Below, piece after piece: positions 45,275-64,000 of a stretch of 64,000 nt of DNA. The notes beneath the pieces were generated by a model that worked only from the letters and a program-made list of their open reading frames with translations, had not been told where the DNA came from and searched no databases. This DNA comes from Sinomonas susongensis (GTDB lineage Bacteria; Actinomycetota; Actinomycetes; Actinomycetales; Micrococcaceae), in NCBI RefSeq assembly GCF_005877005.1, contig NZ_SSNH01000002.1:310001-374000 (forward strand), written 5' to 3'. Numbering within the stretch: position 1 is the stretch's first letter; each line of letters opens with the position of its first letter. Both the position numbers and the translations under genes were made by a program.

Positions 45275-48200
45275 TCAGGAGCTCTTGACCACCAGCAGGA
45301 GATCTCCGCCCTGGACCTGCTGTACGCCGTTGATCGCGATCCGTGAGACCGTGCCCGCGACCGGCGTCGTGATCGAGGCTTCCATCTTCATCGCCTCGAT
45401 GGTCGCGACGGTGTCCCCGGCCTGCAGGACGTCTCCCTCCTTCGCGGTCACGTTCACGGCGCCCGCGAATGGCGCGGCCACGTGGTTCGGGTTCGCCGGA
45501 TCGGCCTTCTCCGCCTGCGCGATATTGCTCTCGACCGACCGGTCGCGCACCGACACCGGCCGCGACTGGCCGTTGAGGAGTGCGAGAACCGTCCGCATGC
45601 CCTTCTCGTCAGGCTCGGAGACGGCCTCGAGCTGAGCGATGAGGCGGACGCCCCGCTCGAGCTCGATCACGTGCTCCTTGCCACGCTGGAACCCGTACAG
45701 GTAGTCACGGGTATCGAGCACGGAGAGGTTGCCGAAGGCCTCGCGGTTCGCGAGGTACTCCTTGGTCGGCCCCGGGAAGAGGAGGCGGTTGAGGGTCGCA
45801 CGCCGTGTCGCCGAGTCCCCGCGGAGCGCCTCCGAGTCCTCGGGGCTCAGGGCCTCCTCGCGGACCTTCACTGTCCGCCCCTGCAGCGCCTTGCTGCGGA
45901 ACGGCTCGGGCCAGCCCCCGGGCGGGTCGCCGAGCTCCCCGCCGAGGAAGCCGATGACCGAGTCGGGGATGTCGTACTTCTGCGGATTCTCCTGGAACTC
46001 CGCCGGGTCGGCGTTGATGCCCACGAGGTGCAGGGCCAGATCCCCCACGACCTTCGACGACGGCGTGACCTTCACGAGGTGGCCGAGGATCCGATCCGCC
46101 GCCGTGTACATGTCCTCGATCGCCTCGAAGCGCTCGCCGAGGCCGAGCGCAATGGCCTGCTGGCGCAGGTTCGAGAGCTGGCCGCCGGGGATCTCGTGGC
46201 GGTAGACGCGGCCCGTCGGGCCCGGAAGACCGGACTCGAACGGTGCGTAGACGCGGCGCACTGCCTCCCAGTACGGCTCAAGGGCGCTCACGTCTTCGAG
46301 CGAGATGCCCGTGTCCCGCGGAGTGTGCGCGAGGGCCGCCACCAGGGCCGACGCCGGCGGCTGGCTCGTGGTGCCCGCAAGGGACGCTGAGGCGACGTCG
46401 ACGGCGTCGACCCCGGCGTCGACCGCGGCGAGGAGTGTCGCGAGCTGCCCGCCCGCCGTGTCGTGCGTGTGCAGGTGGACCGGGAGGTCGAACCGCTCGC
46501 GCAGCGCGGACACGAGCTTGGCGGCGGCCGCCGGCCGCAGGAGACCGGCCATGTCCTTGATCGCCAGGATGTGGGCGCCGGCGTCGACGATCTTCTGTGC
46601 CAGCTCGAGGTAGTAGTCGAGGGTGTAGAGCTTCTCGTTCGGGTCGAGGAGGTCGCCCGTGTAGCAGAGGGCGACCTCGGCAACCGCGGTGCCGGTGTCG
46701 CGGACGGCTCGGATGGCGGGCGCCATCTGGTTCACGTCGTTGAGCGCGTCGAAGATGCGGAAGATGTCGATTCCCGTCTCGGCGGCCTCCTTGACGAAGG
46801 CGTCGGTGACTTCCTCCGGGTAAGGGGTGTAGCCGACCGTGTTGCGACCGCGCAGGAGCATCTGGATGCAGATGTTGGGGATCGCGGCGCGCAGGGCGGC
46901 GAGGCGCTGCCACGGGTCCTCGCCGAGGAAGCGGAGCGCGACGTCGTACGTCGCACCCCCCCAGGCCTCGACCGAAAGCAGCTGCGGCGTGAGGACCGAG
47001 ACTGCCGGTCCGGCCGCGACGAGGTCGCGCGTCCTGACCCGCGTCGCCAGGAGCGACTGATGGGCGTCGCGGAACGTCGTGTCGGTCACTGCCACCGGGG
47101 TCTGCTCGCGGAGCGCCTTCGCGAAGCCCTCGGGGCCGAGTTCGAGCAGACGCTGCCGGGAGCCGGCCGGCGCACTCGAGACGTCCACGGCGGGAAGCTT
47201 GTCGCGCGGATCGGCGTGCACCGTGAGTTCGCCGTTGGGCTTGTTCACCGTGACGTCTGCAAGCCAGCTGAGCAGCTTGGTTCCCCGGTCGGCCGAGCTG
47301 CGGGCGTGCAGCAGTTCGGGGCGCTCGTCGATGAACGACGTGGCGACGTTGCCCTCGACGAAGTCCTTGTCGTCGAGCACGGCCTGAAGGAACGGGATGT
47401 TCGTCGAGACGCCGCGGATGCGGAATTCGGCGAGGGCACGACGGGCGCGCTTGACGGCGGTCGCGTAGTCGCGCCCACGGCACGTGAGCTTGACGAGCAT
47501 CGAGTCGAAGTGGGGGCTGATCTCGGCCCCCTGGTACACCGTGCCGCCGTCGAGCCGGACGCCGGCGCCGCCCGCGGACCTGTATCCCGTGATCTTCCCG
47601 ACGTCGGGACGGAACCCGTTCGCCGGGTCCTCCGTCGTGATGCGGCACTGGAGGGCCGCCCCCCGGAGCCGGATCGACTCCTGGGAGAGCCCGAGGTCCG
47701 CGAGCGTCTCCCCCGAGGCGATGCGGAGCTGCGCCTGGACGAGGTCGACGTCGGTGACCTCCTCCGTGACCGTGTGCTCGACCTGGATGCGGGGGTTCAT
47801 CTCGATGAACACGTGCTGGCCCGCACGGTCGCCGACGGTGTCGACAAGGAATTCGACGGTGCCCGCGTTCACGTAGCCGAGGGCTTTCGCGAACTTGACC
47901 GCATCCGCGTAGAGCGCCTGACGGATCGACTCGTCGAGCTGGGGCGCCGGAGCGATCTCGATGACCTTCTGGTGCCGCCGCTGAAGCGAGCAGTCCCGCT
48001 CGAACAGGTGCACGACGTTGCCCTCGGCGTCGGCCAGGACCTGCACCTCGATGTGACGGGGACGCAGGACGGCCTGCTCGAGGAAGACCGTCGGATCGCC
48101 GAAGGCCGCGTCGGCCTCGCGCATGGCGGCGTTGAGCGCTTCCGGAAGAGCCTCGCGTGCATCGACGCGCCGCATGCCGCGGCCACCGCCGCCCGCGACG

Positions 48201-57242: not shown

Positions 57243-57265
57243 CCGCTGACCTGATGGGTCAGCGG
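57243..57265 (-). terminator. hairpin at the 3' end of ligD
   Basis: CCGCTGACC (57243-57251) pairs with GGTCAGCGG (57257-57265) around TGATG. It contains the ligD stop codon and, on the minus strand, is followed by CCTTTGC. Moderate terminator. Confidence 0.5.
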
Positions 57266-59430
57266 GTCAGGACCGAGGCGAGGTCGTAGCTGACGGGTTC
57301 CTCGAGCTGGTCGTAGGTGCACGACTCCGGCGAGCGGTCCTCGCGCCATCGGACCCATTGCGCGGTGTGGCGGAACCGCTCGCCCTCCATGTGGTCGTAC
57401 TTGACCTCGACGACGCGCTCCGGCCGCAGCGGGGTGAAAGAGAGGTCCTTGTCTGCATTCCAGCGGGACCGTGCGGCCGCCGTAGGAGTGCGAGGCGCGG
57501 GCTGGTCGCGGTTGTCCGGCAGCACCTGGGCGGCCTCCGCCCACGCCCAGGGGTGCCCCTCGAACGTGGTCACGAGCGGCTGCAGCTCCTCGAACAGCTC
57601 CTTGCGGCGGGCCATGGGAAACGCCCCGATGACGCCCACCGAGTTGAGCCTGCCCTGGGTGTCGTACAGGCCCAGGAGCAGGGATCCGATGGCGTCTGGC
57701 TCGTTCTTGTAGAGCCGGTACCCGGCGAGGACGCAGTCGGCCGTCCGCTCGTGCTTGAGTTTGGACATGACCCGCTTGTCCTCGGCGTAGAGCTCTCCGA
57801 GGGGCTTGGCGATGACGCCGTCCAGGCCGGCGCCCTCGAAAGTGCTGAACCACTCCAGCGCGACGGCGGGGTCGTTGGTCGCCTGAGTGAGGTAGACCGG
57901 GGGCTTGGCGTCCTTGAGTGCCTCCTCGAGGGCAGCGCGCCGCTCGCCGAACGGACGCTCCACGTAGTTGGTCTGGCCCAGGGCGAGCAGGTCGAAGGCC
58001 ACGAAGCTCGCCGGCGTCGCGGCACTCAGCTTTGCGATCCGGGAGGCCGCAGGGTGAATGCGCTGCTGGAGGGCATCGAAGTTGAGCCGGTCGCCCGTGT
58101 CCGGGTCCACGAGGATGATTTCGCCGTCGATGACCGAGTGGTCGGGGACGCTTGCAACGATGGCTTCGACGAGTTCCGGGAAGTAGCGCGTCATCGGCAG
58201 TGCGTTGCGCGATCCGATCTCGACCCGATCACCGGAGCGCCACACGATCGAGCGGAAGCCATCCCACTTCGGCTCGTACAGGTACTCGCCGATCGGGAGC
58301 TTCTTGACCGGCTTGGCCAGCATCGGCCCGTAAGGCGGAGCGATCGCGGTGCCCCACTCGGCGTCGCGCTCCGCTTTGGGCGCCGAATAGTCGTCGTCCG
58401 CTCGGTCAGCCTTGCGCTTGCTCGGCGGCACCCGCGGCGGCTCGCCGGGCATCTTGGGGTAGTCCGGCGGGAAGTTGAGCTCGCCGAGCCCGCGCTCGAG
58501 GTCCGCGTCCCAGAGGGCGAGTGCCCCCGAAATGTCGCCCGGCGCGGCGTCGATGTCTGCCCACGGGCAGCTGCGGGCGGCCAGGAGCGCGGGAACCGTA
58601 CGGACCGTGAAGTCGCGCGGGTCAGCGTCGGGGAGCTCGTCCCAGGTCAGCGGGGTTGAGACGGGCGCGTGGGGCAGGGGGCGGGGCGAATAGGCAGCGG
58701 CGATCGTCCGGTCGCGGTTGGCCTGGTTGAAGTCGACGAAGACCCGCTCGCCGCGCTCCTCCTTCCACCACGCGGTGGTCACGAGGTCCGGCATGCGTCG
58801 CTCCAGCTCGCGTGCGATCCCGATGACGGCGTGGCGCACCTGAAGGAACTCGTGGGTGGGCCGGATGCGCGCGTAGACGTGGACGCCCCGGTTGCCCGAC
58901 GTCTTCGCGTAGGCCGTGAGCCCGGCCTCGGCCATGACCTCGCGCAGCGCGAGCGCGGCGGTGACGGCGTCCCGGAAGTCGCGCCCGGGCTGGGGATCGA
59001 GGTCGATCCGCAGCTCGTCCGGGTTGTCCAGATTGGCCGTGCGCACCGGCCACGGATGGAAGGTGATCGTTCCCATCTGCGCCGCCCAGGCGAGGGCGGC
59101 GGCCTCGTCGAACACGAGCTGGTCGTGGCGCCTGTGGGACGGGTAGGTGCAGGTCACCGTCCTGAGGTAGGAAGGAGCGCCCCGCGGCGGCCGCTTCGAG
59201 AAGAACTCCTCGCCGTCGATCCCTTCGGGGAAGCGCTGCAGAGTCATGGGCCGGTCGCCGTTGAGCCGCAGAAAGGGCGATGCCACTGAGATCAGGTAGC
59301 TGGCCAGGTCGCGCTTGGTGAGGGGCTGATGCCCTTCGACGCCGGGCCACAGCACCTTCTCCGGGCTGCTCAGCTTGACCTCCCGCGCACCGTCGGGGCC
59401 GTCCACGTACAGGATCTCAGAATCCGCCAT
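57259..59430 (-). CDS. ligD: non-homologous end-joining polymerase-ligase LigD
   Basis: ATP-dependent DNA ligase fused to an archaeo-eukaryotic primase-like polymerase. The 723-residue protein has the polymerase domain first (about 1-290: metal aspartates in ELRIDLDPQPGRDFRD), a Lys/Arg-rich linker, then the ligase domain with catalytic lysine near residue 386 in YEPKWDGFRSIVWRSGDRVE, motif III (FDLLALGQTNYVERPF), and an OB fold to the end. No 3'-phosphoesterase nuclease domain is visible, and no ku gene is in the window. The ATG at 59430 (MADSEILYVDGPDG) follows TACCGT at the leaderless distance; upstream extension is not supported. Confidence 0.93.
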   Translation of the reverse strand: MADSEILYVDGPDGAREVKLSSPEKVLWPGVEGHQPLTKRDLASYLISVASPFLRLNGDRPMTLQRFPEGIDGEEFFSKRPPRGAPSYLRTVTCTYPSHRRHDQLVFDEAAALAWAAQMGTITFHPWPVRTANLDNPDELRIDLDPQPGRDFRDAVTAALALREVMAEAGLTAYAKTSGNRGVHVYARIRPTHEFLQVRHAVIGIARELERRMPDLVTTAWWKEERGERVFVDFNQANRDRTIAAAYSPRPLPHAPVSTPLTWDELPDADPRDFTVRTVPALLAARSCPWADIDAAPGDISGALALWDADLERGLGELNFPPDYPKMPGEPPRVPPSKRKADRADDDYSAPKAERDAEWGTAIAPPYGPMLAKPVKKLPIGEYLYEPKWDGFRSIVWRSGDRVEIGSRNALPMTRYFPELVEAIVASVPDHSVIDGEIILVDPDTGDRLNFDALQQRIHPAASRIAKLSAATPASFVAFDLLALGQTNYVERPFGERRAALEEALKDAKPPVYLTQATNDPAVALEWFSTFEGAGLDGVIAKPLGELYAEDKRVMSKLKHERTADCVLAGYRLYKNEPDAIGSLLLGLYDTQGRLNSVGVIGAFPMARRKELFEELQPLVTTFEGHPWAWAEAAQVLPDNRDQPAPRTPTAAARSRWNADKDLSFTPLRPERVVEVKYDHMEGERFRHTAQWVRWREDRSPESCTYDQLEEPVSYDLASVLTR

Positions 59431-59437
59431 GCGCCCA

Positions 59438-59443
59438 ACGGTA
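59438..59443 (-). promoter_or_regulatory. -10 element of ligD, leaderless layout
   Basis: TACCGT, seven bases, then the ATG of ligD. No ribosome site is visible. The promoter lies between ligD and the hairpin at 59487-59518. Confidence 0.45.
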
Positions 59444-59486
59444 GCTGCCACAGCGCCATCGGGGCAGATCGGACTCACCAACGCAA

Positions 59487-59518
59487 AAGCCGCGGGAACG
59501 ATTGAGTTCCCGCGGCTT
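59487..59518 (-). terminator. 13-bp terminator hairpin at the island boundary
   Basis: AAGCCGCGGGAAC (59487-59499) pairs perfectly with GTTCCCGCGGCTT (59506-59518) around GATTGA. On the minus strand the stem is followed by TTGCGTTGG, giving a TTTT run with the stem end. It stops transcription toward ligD from the low-GC region and marks the end of backbone sequence. Confidence 0.7.
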
Positions 59519-59564
59519 CGTGGTCGAGGTCCTGACACAGTATTCAAAGCAGGGCCTCCACAAA

Positions 59565-59954
59565 ATGCGCCAGCTGGAGGCAGTGGCCGCCGCCACTACT
59601 CAACTAGCCCAGAACGAACAGTGGAAGCCACATCAGGAGCCGAAACCACGCTACCGCCTCAACGACCGCCTCGGCCTAGAGGTGCTGGACCAGATCGTTG
59701 CCCGCTATGAGGCAGGCGAGCCGACGACTGCGCTTGCGGCCGAGTTTGGAGTCGCCAAGTCATCCTTGCTACGCCTTCTTGAAGTCCGCGGCATTGCCAT
59801 GCGCAACCAGCGCCTGACATCCGACCAAAAGCAGCAGATCCTGCAACTCAGGAAACAGGGAACGGCCATCCGTGCGATCGCAGCCCGGGTAGGCTGCAGC
59901 TACGGTACCACCCAGGCCTTCCTCAAGGTGCAGTCGGATCCGACGTCTCGTTAG
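59565..59954 (+). CDS. small protein with two helix-turn-helix motifs
   Basis: The 129-residue protein (from ATG 59565; alternative start at 59502) begins MRQLEAVAAATTQLAQNEQW and has two HTH segments: EAGEPTTALAAEFGVAKSSLLRLLEVRG (about 60-85) and LRKQGTAIRAIAARVGCSYGTTQAFLKV (about 100-125). These look like the DNA-binding arms of Hin-type serine recombinases, without any catalytic domain, and similar proteins occur next to recombinases in actinobacterial islands. Base composition is lower in GC than the chromosome. Its stop codon interleaves with that of the ATPase gene (TTAG), so it is convergent with it. Function unknown; could be a regulator or recombination factor. Confidence 0.68.
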   Translation: MRQLEAVAAATTQLAQNEQWKPHQEPKPRYRLNDRLGLEVLDQIVARYEAGEPTTALAAEFGVAKSSLLRLLEVRGIAMRNQRLTSDQKQQILQLRKQGTAIRAIAARVGCSYGTTQAFLKVQSDPTSR

Positions 59955-62900
59955 TCGTGTTGTCGCTCGGACGCTTCGACCAATGAATCGACGCCGTACG
60001 CACCTGAGATCAGAAGCTGGTCAACTAGGTCGAGAACGGCTGCACGCTGCTGGTCGGTCACGGCTTGCGCGTATGCGCGTATGAGCAGCGCGCCGACCTC
60101 TCGCGCATCGCCTGCCGCGGCCGTCCGGATGTCCGCGACATCTCGGTTATTGATTTCAAGGAATCTCCGCGCGGCGGCAATGGCGAGGTCGTCGACCCGG
60201 TCGGGGGCCGCTTCAAGTGTCAAGAACATCTGAACCGACATGTCGGAGAAGGTCGGAGAGTTGATCATCGACAGCAGCAGGCCTCGATACGGAGCTAAGC
60301 GCTCTCCTCGGAGCTGAACAGCTACCTCCGCTGACGCCTCACGGACCTCAGGCGATTGGTCGTTACAAAATTCGGTCAGTGCCAAGGCGATTTGGCCTCG
60401 ATTGGTTGTGCCTACCAATTGATATACACATCCACGTGCCGCCCCTATACGAGCTTCCCGGTCGGATCCAGAACGAACCCGTTGCAGCGGTCCGTCGAGT
60501 CCCCATTGAGCTGATGCCATGGCGGCTAACTCACCACCGCGTTCGCGGGCACCATCCACCGTCGAACTTAGCATCCGATCGATTAGCAGTTTGACCGTGT
60601 CGATGTCCGTATAGCCGACGGCATGAATCAGCCTTCGCACAGTGGAGGCAGAGAGAATGCTATCGCTGAAATCGATAAGGATCTTGAATGCTGTAATTGC
60701 TTGCTCGGGCTGGAATCGCAAGCAAGTAAGAATAACGTCGGCTACGGCAGCGCGCACGCCAACCACTGGGTCTGATGCCATCTGCGAAAGAGAGCCCACT
60801 ACAGCGTTCGTCAGTATTCCGTCGGTATCAGCAGACAACAGGACAGCAAGATCCAAAGCGAGGGCTCCGCGTGCGCAATTCATCGACTGACTCTCGATCT
60901 TGTCAGCTGTAGACGGTTGCTCCTCATCGTCGCTAAATTCCGGATCTGGGCTCGTAAGCACTTTGTCCGCGACCAGCTGTACCATATCAACTGGAACATG
61001 GCCGCGAAACCGCTTCAGGGGCAATCCCAACCACTGGTCGTTCTCCGGATGCCCCAAAGAGGCGATGTGTCGCACCGCAGCAAAGACGGCCTCCGATGAT
61101 TCGCACTTCTCTGCTTGGGAAACTCCCAATAGTATGGCATTGGCGTAATTCGGGTTCACATTTGATGTTAGTTTCAGCGCTAGAACTAGGAACCGATCAG
61201 TGTTTTCACTTGCGCTTTTTTGGAGCATGGAGGCAAGCTCATGAACGCCGCCGGTGAATGTGGCCCAGTTCGCGCCCTCTTGGTTGTGCTTTATGAAGGC
61301 TCGAATCCATTGGTCGTCTGTCAGCAGCCTCGCCTTGTCCGGTGGGATAGGCGAGCGGATGAAGCCGGATGCCATCGAATCAATTGTCTCGGTCGACTTT
61401 GGTGAAAACTGGCGTCTGAACTCCGCGAGCTTCTTGCGACCGGTGGGCGACAACTTGCTTTCGCACAGGGCGCTCAACAAATCGTATCTGTATCTCAGTT
61501 TGTATTGCTTGTCCCAAGGGAGACGAAAATCCAGGATCTGACGCTCTAAGCTCTGATGCTGCGTATCCGTGATATGCGCGCAGATCGCAGACAGGACGGA
61601 TGCTGCCAGTTCGAAGGCGTCTGTTCCTCTGAATCTGTGAGGACCTTCAAGCATTACGTCGGCAATACGTAGGGCGAGGGCCGATGGCTGCAGCAGGGCA
61701 ACTTTGTATAGGATCCACTGGGCAACATCATGATCATCTCGAGCGAAGGGCTCGAGTAGTTCCCACGTTGCAGCGTCATCGCTAATGAGCTTGCCAAACG
61801 CGCGGACCAGACCGACGATGATCGCCTGATCTAGCTCGTGCGTTCCAAAGCTAATGTAGTGAGCAGAGAACTGCCGTGACGGTTTCGGAGCCTCGCTATC
61901 TGCAACCTCGGTTGTCTTGAGAAGCCCGAGAATATACGGAGCAAACTTCTCGACGAACAGAGTTGGAGCAGCGTCGGATGCGTGCTGGACCAGGTCAATG
62001 ACGGTATGGTCGTTGTCTTTCAGTGCTTCGAGAGTGCCATCTGGTCTCGGCTCCATCGCACCGGAACGATCGATGAGGAAGGCACCTAAGAGCTCAGCTG
62101 CCCAGTCTGGCTTCTTCTGCGCCAGCCCGTAAGAACTGAGCCAGAGCGAGTGGGCTTCAGTGTCGTAAACTCCGCGTCGGACGGCCTCCAGCAGGACGTC
62201 AAAGAGCGGACGGCTTTCGCTGATATCAGCGAATCGGACTACCCATCGGACCCAAGAAGCAATCTCGGGATTATGGGCGTGAGCACGAAGCACCTCAGCC
62301 AGGCGGTCTGCCTTCGTACGCGCGACAGTCGGCATCAGTTCAAGGGCGTGCCTCTGCTGTTCCTCGTCCATGCCGAGCCAGTCCATAATCATGCCATCGC
62401 TGTCGAGGCGATCAAACCAATCATCCGTCCGGAGGGCCGTCCAGACATGCTCACTAAAATCCGGATTCGTGTCTAGGACCATCTGCACGATGGTCCAGTC
62501 TGTCGTCGTTGGGCTTGCTAGTGACTTCAAGACCGCCAATGCGACAGCCTTGATATGAAACCGGACCGATGGTTCTGTGAGCAGAGCAAGTAATTCAGAG
62601 CGAAACCTGTCAGCGTTGACCTCGCGAAGGTAGTTCAGCACCTGCCGAACTTGAGACCGGCGGAAAAGCTCTTGCTTGGTGCCATTAACGAAGTCGACCA
62701 GCGACTGCCCCGACTGCATCCATCGACGGGCGAATGCGTAGTCAAAGAAGGATTCATGGAAGAAGGCAATCTTCGAGCCATCACGAACCAGCACATTCTC
62801 GGACACAAGGTATGCCGCATCGGCGGAGAGGTCGTCGCCGTCAAGGACGCTCATCGGCACGGCCAAAGATTGTTCTGTGCTAATCGAGTCGACAATCTTG

Positions 62901-64000
62901 AAGATGATAGCGTCGAAGCGCACTTGTCGGCCTGACCGACGCCGACACTCGTTGGCCTTCCGTTCCCAGAAGACGTCAAAGAGTTGGTTCGCGCTCTCGA
63001 ATTGGGGGAATGCCGCTTGCGACACTATGCCGCCCAGCATCCTGAGGTTTAATGGTGACGACAGAAGCTCAAACTGTGATTGCTCCAGTCCAGCCGGATC
63101 AACCCCCATTGCTAGGAGGACCTCCTGGACTTGATCACTCGTGAGGTTCCCGACCTCAAACAAGTCCGACTCTGGTTTGGTCGACAATTGCCGCATCCGA
63201 GGGTCGTTTTCGATGTCGAATTTCCGCGAGCCGAAGACCAATTGGATATTTTCGAACGCGGAGGCTTCGCGGACGAGGTCCTCTATGCTTGCAAGATTTT
63301 CCGGGAGTCGCCCTGAAAGTAAGCTCGCAGCGTCAAGTTGATCAATGACGAGGACGGCCGCCTGGCCGTTGATGTGTTCGGCAACTACGGCTACGGGTGA
63401 CGCCGACAGTCCAAGAACACGGCCAAGATCGTCTGTCGACGAAAAGCTATCGAGCCTGTCAAGACGAAATGCGAAAACCGATATGCCGTCGTCCTGAAGG
63501 CGCCTGGCAGCTTGCGCCAACACCGCGCTCTTACCAGAACCGCCCGCTCCGACGACAAAGTGCGTCCGGTGCGAGGCGCCGATGATCGTGGCAGCAAGAT
63601 CAGAAGCTTCCTGCCTCGGGATAGCCGGGTCGAGAGATGCCTCGCTGACCGAGGCGAACCAGTTGTTGGTAACGACGGTAAACCGATCAACGTCCGTTCG
63701 GCTGGCCTCGTGATATCTGGGGACAATGCCGTATGAACGTAGGCCAGCCTCAATGGAAGGTGAATCAAGAATCTTACCTAGGCTATTGAGAGCGAAATTG
63801 CCTAGGCCCGCTGCGATTAGCTTTCCGGTTAAGTCACCAGATTCCCCTCGAAGCATTGCAGCCGCGATTGCAGCATTCTGTAGTTCAAGATCCCTCTCGT
63901 CGGACCAAGAAATGTGGAATCCGCGAAGCAGTGTCCACGCGGCTTCAGGTGAGTCGACTACTTGAAGGACCTGATCTCGAGTCTGATTCAACTTTTCTGA
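59951..64000 (-). CDS. STAND/NACHT-like P-loop ATPase with long helical-repeat tail, 5' end outside window
   Basis: At least 1349 codons are open to the window edge; the visible TTG at 63991 is not a convincing start, so the N-terminus lies beyond. Counting from 63991, the P-loop HFVVGAGGSGKSAVLAQ sits at 144-160, Walker B AAVLVIDQLD at 211-220, the arginine/sensor region IQLVFGSRKFD near 250, a winged-helix-like stretch with NLTSDQVQEVLLAMGVD, and a conserved FFHESFFDYAFARRW near 415 as in NACHT and other STAND proteins. From about 450 to the end (about 900 residues) are alpha-helical, HEAT-like repeats. This layout (NTPase plus large sensor repeats) is that of anti-phage Avs-type and other conflict ATPases; the effector part would be upstream. 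GC is clearly lower than the surrounding chromosome. Function is inferred. Confidence 0.75.
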   Translation of the reverse strand, partial: SEKLNQTRDQVLQVVDSPEAAWTLLRGFHISWSDERDLELQNAAIAAAMLRGESGDLTGKLIAAGLGNFALNSLGKILDSPSIEAGLRSYGIVPRYHEASRTDVDRFTVVTNNWFASVSEASLDPAIPRQEASDLAATIIGASHRTHFVVGAGGSGKSAVLAQAARRLQDDGISVFAFRLDRLDSFSSTDDLGRVLGLSASPVAVVAEHINGQAAVLVIDQLDAASLLSGRLPENLASIEDLVREASAFENIQLVFGSRKFDIENDPRMRQLSTKPESDLFEVGNLTSDQVQEVLLAMGVDPAGLEQSQFELLSSPLNLRMLGGIVSQAAFPQFESANQLFDVFWERKANECRRRSGRQVRFDAIIFKIVDSISTEQSLAVPMSVLDGDDLSADAAYLVSENVLVRDGSKIAFFHESFFDYAFARRWMQSGQSLVDFVNGTKQELFRRSQVRQVLNYLREVNADRFRSELLALLTEPSVRFHIKAVALAVLKSLASPTTTDWTIVQMVLDTNPDFSEHVWTALRTDDWFDRLDSDGMIMDWLGMDEEQQRHALELMPTVARTKADRLAEVLRAHAHNPEIASWVRWVVRFADISESRPLFDVLLEAVRRGVYDTEAHSLWLSSYGLAQKKPDWAAELLGAFLIDRSGAMEPRPDGTLEALKDNDHTVIDLVQHASDAAPTLFVEKFAPYILGLLKTTEVADSEAPKPSRQFSAHYISFGTHELDQAIIVGLVRAFGKLISDDAATWELLEPFARDDHDVAQWILYKVALLQPSALALRIADVMLEGPHRFRGTDAFELAASVLSAICAHITDTQHQSLERQILDFRLPWDKQYKLRYRYDLLSALCESKLSPTGRKKLAEFRRQFSPKSTETIDSMASGFIRSPIPPDKARLLTDDQWIRAFIKHNQEGANWATFTGGVHELASMLQKSASENTDRFLVLALKLTSNVNPNYANAILLGVSQAEKCESSEAVFAAVRHIASLGHPENDQWLGLPLKRFRGHVPVDMVQLVADKVLTSPDPEFSDDEEQPSTADKIESQSMNCARGALALDLAVLLSADTDGILTNAVVGSLSQMASDPVVGVRAAVADVILTCLRFQPEQAITAFKILIDFSDSILSASTVRRLIHAVGYTDIDTVKLLIDRMLSSTVDGARERGGELAAMASAQWGLDGPLQRVRSGSDREARIGAARGCVYQLVGTTNRGQIALALTEFCNDQSPEVREASAEVAVQLRGERLAPYRGLLLSMINSPTFSDMSVQMFLTLEAAPDRVDDLAIAAARRFLEINNRDVADIRTAAAGDAREVGALLIRAYAQAVTDQQRAAVLDLVDQLLISGAYGVDSLVEASERQHD

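What the first reader, a model, noticed from the sequence alone, without database searches (positions are those of the whole stretch)
59951..64000. Low-GC giant STAND ATPase: candidate uncharacterised defence system
A more than 1346-residue protein with a P-loop (GAGGSGKS), Walker B (VLVIDQLD), an FFHESFFDYAF motif as in STAND/NACHT proteins, and a roughly 900-residue helical-repeat tail. Such proteins sense phage proteins and activate an effector. I do not recognise the specific family, and no nuclease, TIR or protease part is visible inside the window; it may be encoded upstream of the right edge or in a neighbour. Hand count of 61141-61200 gives 27 of 60 GC, against 43 of 60 at 47041-47100, so it was probably acquired.
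Basis: partly seen in the sequence, partly recalled or inferred. Interest (0 to 1): 0.85.

Follow-up and report, generated by a model that had tools for sequence, protein, structure and literature searches.

The report
Nuclease-armed bacterial NLR-like defence gene
The open reading frame is most of a large single-gene bacterial immune sensor, a DNA-cutting domain joined to an NLR-type switch and a long sensing tail, sitting at the end of an acquired defence island next to a small DNA-binding gene that often turns up at the ends of other defence operons.

Summary
Observation confirmed. The ORF is on the minus strand and runs past the right edge; the complete protein has 1478 residues. Then come an NLR-like STAND switch and an all-helical tail of about 880 residues. 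Top Foldseek matches are Avs3 and Avs4, then NLRP3/NLRC4. A relative of known structure exists (9n00), and PADLOC holds the STAND core as an unnamed candidate (PDC-M54A), so this is a new member of a known kind: an Avs-like sensor, probably abortive. It ends a low-GC run of genes (type I restriction-modification, Abi_C protein, STAND) beside ligD and is absent from 14 of 14 congeners. Its relatives show no constant partner gene.

More novel is the small convergent gene overlapping its stop codon. This tandem-HTH "cap" recurs convergent with unrelated defence operons (CBASS, Gabija, Qat, HerA, PDC-S06) in Micrococcaceae, in same-orientation arrays, often starting flush against a strong hairpin. 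Outside that family the defence link was not seen (0 of 5). Three literature searches aimed at it found no description. Functions are inferred for both genes.

The parts
59951..64000 (-). STAND gene, residues 130-1478 plus stop codon (the first 129 codons lie beyond the window edge, up to G000:C12:374387)
63527..63550 (-). P-loop GAGGSGKS (residues 280-287)
   Evidence: for the residue number; G283, G285, K286 invariant in 75 rows, G280 0.97
63332..63355 (-). Walker B VLVIDQLD (residues 345-352)
   Evidence: D349, Q350, D352 invariant in 75 rows
62732..62764 (-). FFHESFFDYAF motif (residues 542-552)
   Evidence: F542, H544, E545 invariant in 75 rows; this motif was one of the two search patterns, so its conservation is biased
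59954..62590 (-). all-helical repeat tail, residues 600-1478, presumed sensor
   Evidence: AlphaFold model of window 59954-62590, pLDDT 89.8
59520..59954 (+). convergent tandem-HTH 'cap' gene (ORF open from TTG 59502; GTG at 59520 where the family alignment starts, taken as the start); overlaps the STAND stop codon by 4 bp
59487..59518 (.). stem-loop of 13 Watson-Crick pairs (14 with a G-U in the minus-strand RNA), flush against the cap start codon
   Evidence: fold of 59470-59520 minus strand gives -28.1 kcal/mol, z -5.0; the strict terminator scan did not list it
57259..59430 (-). ligD-like ATP-dependent DNA ligase, core-genome flank of the island (product name is my reading of the sequence; 15 of 15 genomes of the genus have a match)

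Best explanation
A single-gene, Avs/NLR-like immune sensor and executioner. Residues 1-130 form a PD-(D/E)XK (Cap4-type) DNA nuclease, about 220-600 a STAND/NACHT-like nucleotide switch with winged-helix part, and about 600-1478 a helical-repeat sensor. Most likely mechanism: at rest the protein is ADP-bound and autoinhibited; the helical tail binds a conserved phage (or other invader) protein; nucleotide exchange lets protomers oligomerise; the clustered nuclease domains cut DNA and the infected cell stops or dies before phage release. Shown here: gene, domain order, fold prediction, conserved nuclease and ATPase residues, patchy distribution, defence-island setting. Inferred: phage trigger, oligomerisation, DNA as the target, abortive outcome. 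It probably works independently of its neighbours (type I RM and Abi_C protein), which are island mates.
Against: No phage data. The window protein's own N-terminus matches no Pfam family even at E 10 nor in the alignment run (member 1); the nuclease call rests on relatives, motif and predicted fold. All Pfam STAND, NACHT and HEAT matches are below gathering score. No named Avs model in PADLOC matches. TM-scores to Avs3/Avs4 are low (0.24-0.27 by query, rmsd over 20; NLRP3 0.42), as the domains do not superpose together. The N-terminal model is of a relative, because the window's own N-terminus lies outside the window; the VIA search barely tested residues 1-222. No relative was found on phage records or viral contigs.
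Confidence: 0.82

Rival explanations
1. Accessory of the type I restriction system: the STAND and Abi_C genes act only together with HsdMSR, for example as a backup killer when restriction fails.
For: One run of genes on one strand: HsdM, HsdS, HsdR, Abi_C, STAND, with gaps under 100 bp or overlaps. Aeromicrobium and Geodermatophilus relatives (L081, L065) also follow an HsdR and a 239-247 aa gene. In a congener (L052) the same hsdR (85.9% over 3219 bp) is followed by a different candidate, PDC-S06, in the place of Abi_C and STAND.
Against: Only 4 of 80 relatives have an HsdR relative nearby and none of the 80 has an Abi_C relative at E 1e-6 (some loci are cut short by contig ends). The Rhizobium and Sinorhizobium plasmid relatives have no RM gene listed within 8 kb (that gene table is incomplete).
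Confidence: 0.1
2. A STAND regulator or transcription factor with no nuclease output (NLR-like fold, degenerate N-terminus).
For: No direct sequence match of this protein's N-terminus to any nuclease family.
Against: E39, E49 and K64 kept in 74 of 75 rows; predicted nuclease fold; 9 of 67 members match Cap4_nuclease; no DNA-binding family among the 11 Pfam matches at E 0.5.
Confidence: 0.05
3. Defence against plasmids or other mobile DNA rather than phages (same protein machine, other target).
For: The island lies beside mobile-element genes: Replic_Relax, coupling protein and serine recombinase; related single genes sit on large plasmids.
Against: Top Foldseek matches are phage terminase and portal sensors. 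A fold does not settle the trigger, so this stays open.
Confidence: 0.15

Closest known systems
Avs3 / Avs4 (AVAST STAND proteins; PDB 8dgc, 8dgf)
   Same: Order nuclease, STAND NTPase, long sensor in one chain (recalled for Avs3/Avs4); top Foldseek matches of the N-terminal 677 residues.
   Different: 12-14% identity over the match and low TM-scores; not among the five PDB sequence hits at E 10; no Avs model hit in PADLOC; trigger unknown.
Avs2 (Cap4-type nuclease STAND; recalled, not compared here)
   Same: Recalled to carry a Cap4 nuclease N-terminus.
   Different: No PADLOC Avs model matched; no structure or sequence of Avs2 was compared by name.
PDB 9n00 / 9n01 / 9yix, 'AAA family ATPase', 1523 aa
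   Same: Sequence relative over nuclease and STAND parts, E 2.3e-50 with the family profile, 3.5e-10 with the single protein; the N-terminal profile alone aligns weakly around K64 and W73 (E 0.067).
   Different: Tail hardly similar by sequence; title and function not available here, and no paper naming it was found.
PADLOC candidate PDC-M54A
   Same: STAND core, 9.5e-19.
   Different: Match covers residues 276-558 only of a 1621-residue model; the letters M and A suggest a multi-gene candidate (recalled naming habit; one PADLOC paper has no mention of PDC), whereas this family shows no constant partner.
Cap4 / DUF4297 nuclease family (PF14130)
   Same: N-terminal domain of nine of 67 relatives matches.
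   Different: Here fused to a STAND switch; this protein itself is below detection.
Defence-island regulators RptR, BrxR, type II C proteins (for the cap gene; the last two recalled)
   Same: Small HTH proteins beside defence operons.
   Different: RptR is the first gene upstream of its operon and acts at its promoter (PMC12255303, passages read); the cap gene is convergent at the 3' end and is found with many unrelated systems.

Membership tests
STAND / NLR-like NTPase | P-loop, Walker B and conserved switch motifs in one NTPase module | tested here: met
   Motifs at 280, 345, 542, conserved in 75 rows
STAND / NLR-like NTPase | NACHT/NB-ARC-type fold with winged helix | tested here: met
STAND / NLR-like NTPase | Pfam NACHT or nSTAND model above gathering score | tested here: not met
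   Best nSTAND5 22 bits against cut-off 34; NACHT 13.7 against 26.7
Avs (AVAST) types 1-5 | Sequence match to a named Avs model | tested here: not met
   PADLOC hmmscan at E 0.1 returned only two PDC-M54A models; the library does hold an Avs4 model (seen), its other Avs models are recalled
Avs (AVAST) types 1-5 | Effector, STAND and sensor in one chain with Avs-like fold | tested here: met
   Avs3 and Avs4 are the top Foldseek matches by E-value, though with TM 0.24-0.27; domain order
Avs (AVAST) types 1-5 | Activation by phage terminase or portal | not testable with these tools
   Needs co-expression or binding assays
Cap4-type PD-(D/E)XK nuclease | Catalytic acidic residues and QxK | tested here: met
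   E17, E39, E49, K64 in 74 of 75 rows, Q62 in 68 of 75
Cap4-type PD-(D/E)XK nuclease | Match to PF14130 | tested here: inconclusive
   9 of 67 members, best 3.3e-6; the window protein itself none
Cap4-type PD-(D/E)XK nuclease | Cleaves double-stranded DNA | not testable with these tools
   Biochemistry needed
PADLOC PDC-M54A | Full-length match and partner gene(s) | tested here: inconclusive
   Partial match, residues 276-558; partner genes of PDC-M54 not known here
Type I RM accessory | Constant linkage to hsdMSR | tested here: not met
   HsdR relatives in 4 of 80 loci, HsdM in 3, HsdS in 1
Serine recombinase / resolvase (for the cap gene) | Resolvase catalytic domain | tested here: not met
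   Pfam at E 0.5 lists HTH families (HTH_7 in two stretches) and two weak DUFs, no Resolvase domain

The most novel reading that the evidence does not exclude
The window holds one unit of a cassette-like system of defence islands. A small tandem-HTH 'cap' gene, convergent with the last gene of a defence operon, punctuates Micrococcaceae defence islands whatever the defence type. Units [defence operon -> <- cap | hairpin] stand in same-orientation arrays. The cap protein acts at the hairpin-flanked boundary, either as a recombination or homology tag that lets operons be swapped, or as a boundary regulator that limits read-through and antisense transcription between modules. (Scope narrowed from Actinobacteria to Micrococcaceae on recheck, since 0 of 5 scanned cases outside the family had a PADLOC match.)
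Probability: 0.35. Interest if true: 0.72.

Novelty: new member of a known kind. Interest (0 to 1): 0.5.

Why it matters
The STAND family extends nuclease-armed NLR-like immunity: 217 stretches in one-genome-per-species data encode relatives, the 80 kept coming from Actinobacteria, Cyanobacteria, Chloroflexi and others. None of its members seems to have been tested, apart from whatever lies behind PDB 9n00: a reservoir of phage-protein receptors to assay. The cap gene, if its link to defence operon ends holds up, would be a marker for finding new defence operons in Micrococcaceae and would make it testable how such islands gain and swap modules.

Tried and rejected
Housekeeping ATPase: rejected on matches and distribution. 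Obligate partner of the STAND family: none was evident by eye from sizes and strands of up to three genes on each side in 80 loci and from the printed first upstream co-directional genes; I did not cluster the neighbours. Type I RM subunit: rejected. Phage-borne gene: no match in phage records or viral contigs. Cap gene on plasmids or phages: no match at 1e-8 and 1e-6; two weak viral-contig matches at 29-30%, not followed. Cap-defence link outside the family: of five first convergent genes scanned from class-level genomes (L193, L196, L213, L217, L218) none matched PADLOC. Conserved DNA site at the cap's 5' end: same-codon fraction 0.62 in the first ten alignment columns, but 0.62 in the next ten and 0.64 in columns 40-49, so inconclusive. 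Intrinsic terminator at the hairpin: the strict scan of window 59300-60100 listed none; only 6 of 23 caps have a strong hairpin with four or more T at its end. Identity of PDB 9n00: not among the 50 rows shown of either structure search, and not in the paper library; unresolved. Absence of a family is no evidence against it. Searches for the cap gene in print found no description; I saw listings only, of one open-access library.

Full report
WHAT IS THERE. The ORF of the finding is on the minus strand, 59951-64000, and open at the right edge. The window is G000:C12:310001-374000 of a 3.77-Mb, 36-contig genome. Reading on gives a 1478-residue protein with a TTG start, of which the window holds residues 130-1478.

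DISTRIBUTION. 4 of 294 other family genomes carry it, two at 40% and two at 26-27% identity, and 0 of 14 congeners. In a phylum sample 7 of 395 other genomes matched, two of them marginal at 4-5e-4. In one-genome-per-species contigs 217 stretches encode relatives; the best 80 were kept, from Actinobacteria, Cyanobacteria, Chloroflexi, Bryobacterales, Geobacteraceae and others. None on viral contigs or phage records; 12 plasmid records match, none with one place over 80% of the query. More distant plasmid matches cover only the STAND part in proteins named caspase family, pentapeptide or SEFIR, as expected if effectors are exchanged.

NEIGHBOURS. Upstream on the same strand are Abi_C, HsdR, HsdS and HsdM genes, at 55-59% GC. 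Of 80 relatives 4 lie near an HsdR relative, 3 near HsdM, 1 near HsdS, 0 near an Abi_C relative at E 1e-6 (flanks up to 10 kb, many cut by contig ends), so the STAND gene is not bound to them. Left of it is the ligD-like gene of the core genome, matched in 15 of 15 genomes of the genus. Of 13 other flanks upstream of ligD examined, the own flank matches one beyond 40 bp, over 42 bp only, although several of these congeners have 94-96% identical LigD; so this is a variable site. Further right are mobile-element genes, Replic_Relax, a coupling protein and a large serine recombinase, and a second type I RM operon.

THE CAP GENE. The plus-strand gene at 59520-59954 overlaps the STAND stop codon by 4 bp. 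It encodes 144 residues with HTH_7 matched in two stretches and no recombinase domain. In Arthrobacter MYb213 it has two homologues, one downstream of and convergent with the STAND relative and one with an AAA operon. A profile of 11 homologues found matches at 1e-15 in 31 of 295 family genomes and 13 of 296 class genomes, own genome included in both. I took stretches around all of these. 54 ORFs in 45 of 46 loci match at 1e-12 (none in L220), two loci (L210, L217) contributing overlapping ORFs; 51 have over 500 bp on the 3' side; 31 of 51 have a convergent gene within 450 bp and 20 of 51 within 60 bp. Gene calls come from my own script, not a gene finder.

Of those 31 first convergent genes, 29 were scanned match PADLOC at 1e-5: PDC-S06 twice, QatD, GajB, CBASS cyclase twice, HerA twice, a 2TM effector, AbiJ, PDC-S66 twice, PDC-M34B, Ppl, and a weak LmuA. 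The window's STAND is a sixteenth; the L088 STAND was not scanned. 14 of 29 did not match. All 15 matches are among the 24 from the window's own family; 0 of 5 from outside it matched. Across the first up to three convergent genes, 68 proteins (of 69) hit 327 PADLOC families, the commonest in 10. The control, 90 proteins from the other side of the same genes, hit 20 families with at most 22 proteins in all. That control lies in the same islands, so it is conservative, but its proteins are shorter (about 300 against 470 residues on average, from the totals), and six genes that were also convergent genes were left out of it; four of the six were scanned singly and had no match.

Nine of nine pairs of caps within about 7 kb are in the same orientation: L052, L055, L088, L185, L187, L188, L190, L193 and G700 (the second copy in L190 matches at 7.8e-12 and that in G700 has a stop inside). 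dN/dS is 0.12-0.34 in 11 pairs, so the protein is selected. Among four loci from three genera (L055, L088, L182, L183) cap DNA is 81-85% identical over 409-434 bp with the match largely confined to the gene. In a congener (L052) the same hsdR (85.9%) is followed by PDC-S06 instead of Abi_C and STAND, then by a cap: the operon end differs between hsdR and cap.

HAIRPIN. The window's cap start codon is flush against a stem of 13 Watson-Crick pairs (59487-59518; -28.1 kcal/mol, z -5.0). Of 23 caps, a subset that I chose for reaching the start of the profile (not every such cap was included), 12 have a hairpin of -15 kcal/mol or better within 10 bp of the start, against 5 of 143 control ORF starts even when the most favourable start is allowed (Fisher p about 1e-8). 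In a wider set 19 of 32 against 17 of 220 have such a hairpin within about 110 bp. Control starts are those of long ORFs picked by script, some perhaps not genes. T-runs in the direction of the defence operon are seen in some, but the strict terminator scan of the window found none. So a hairpin boundary is supported; a terminator is not proven.

MECHANISM. For the STAND protein I commit to trigger binding by the tail, nucleotide-driven assembly and DNA cleavage with abortive outcome (0.82 for an Avs-like nuclease sensor). Domain order, conservation and setting are shown; trigger, assembly and cleavage are inferred from Avs1-4 (PMC12931631, passages). For the cap I think a boundary function, regulatory or recombinational, is more likely than a passive remnant, because it is selected and recurs with unrelated cargo. 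I cannot choose between regulation and recombination.

NOVELTY. The STAND protein is a new member of a known kind; by sequence it matches none of the named Avs models in PADLOC. The cap pattern is, as far as three searches aimed at it show (listings seen), undescribed. RptR, the nearest regulator that I read about, is upstream of its operon and represses its own promoter (PMC12255303, passages).

Noticed in passing
window 59520-59954 and loci L052-L056, L088, L182-L219: Tandem-HTH cap gene convergent with the ends of unrelated defence operons, in same-orientation arrays.
   Followed up: partly
L003 (G000:C12:384000-403999): Second type I RM operon (HsdM, HsdS, HsdR, then a 555-aa gene) convergent with a large serine recombinase about 130 bp away, beside Replic_Relax and coupling-protein genes; no cap gene there (one cap match in the genome).
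   Followed up: partly
L052, L088, L185, upstream of one cap each: Three caps have their hairpin 33-36 bp from the start codon, with a palindrome such as TGAGAATCATTCT between that resembles a Zur/Fur box (resemblance recalled, not tested).
   Followed up: no
L206-L208, L214-L216: Several caps lie near contig ends, as expected if caps are repeated within a genome and break assemblies.
   Followed up: no
L187 6812-11977, L188 4980-10148: A 1721-1722 aa protein beside caps in two genomes, co-directional with the cap; its N-terminus reads like another nuclease fusion (impression only).
   Followed up: no
L002 17460-18245 (just right of the window): 261-aa protein upstream of hsdM with no Pfam, PADLOC or NCBIfam match.
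   Followed up: no
L185 10598-13317: Five pilin-like genes (GFTIVELLIVIVVIAIL) between two caps: cargo that is not obviously defence.
   Followed up: no
L028 4857-6878: Beside the Sinorhizobium numidicum STAND relative: multiubiquitin, ThiF-like and DUF6527 genes, a bacterial ubiquitin-like operon.
   Followed up: no
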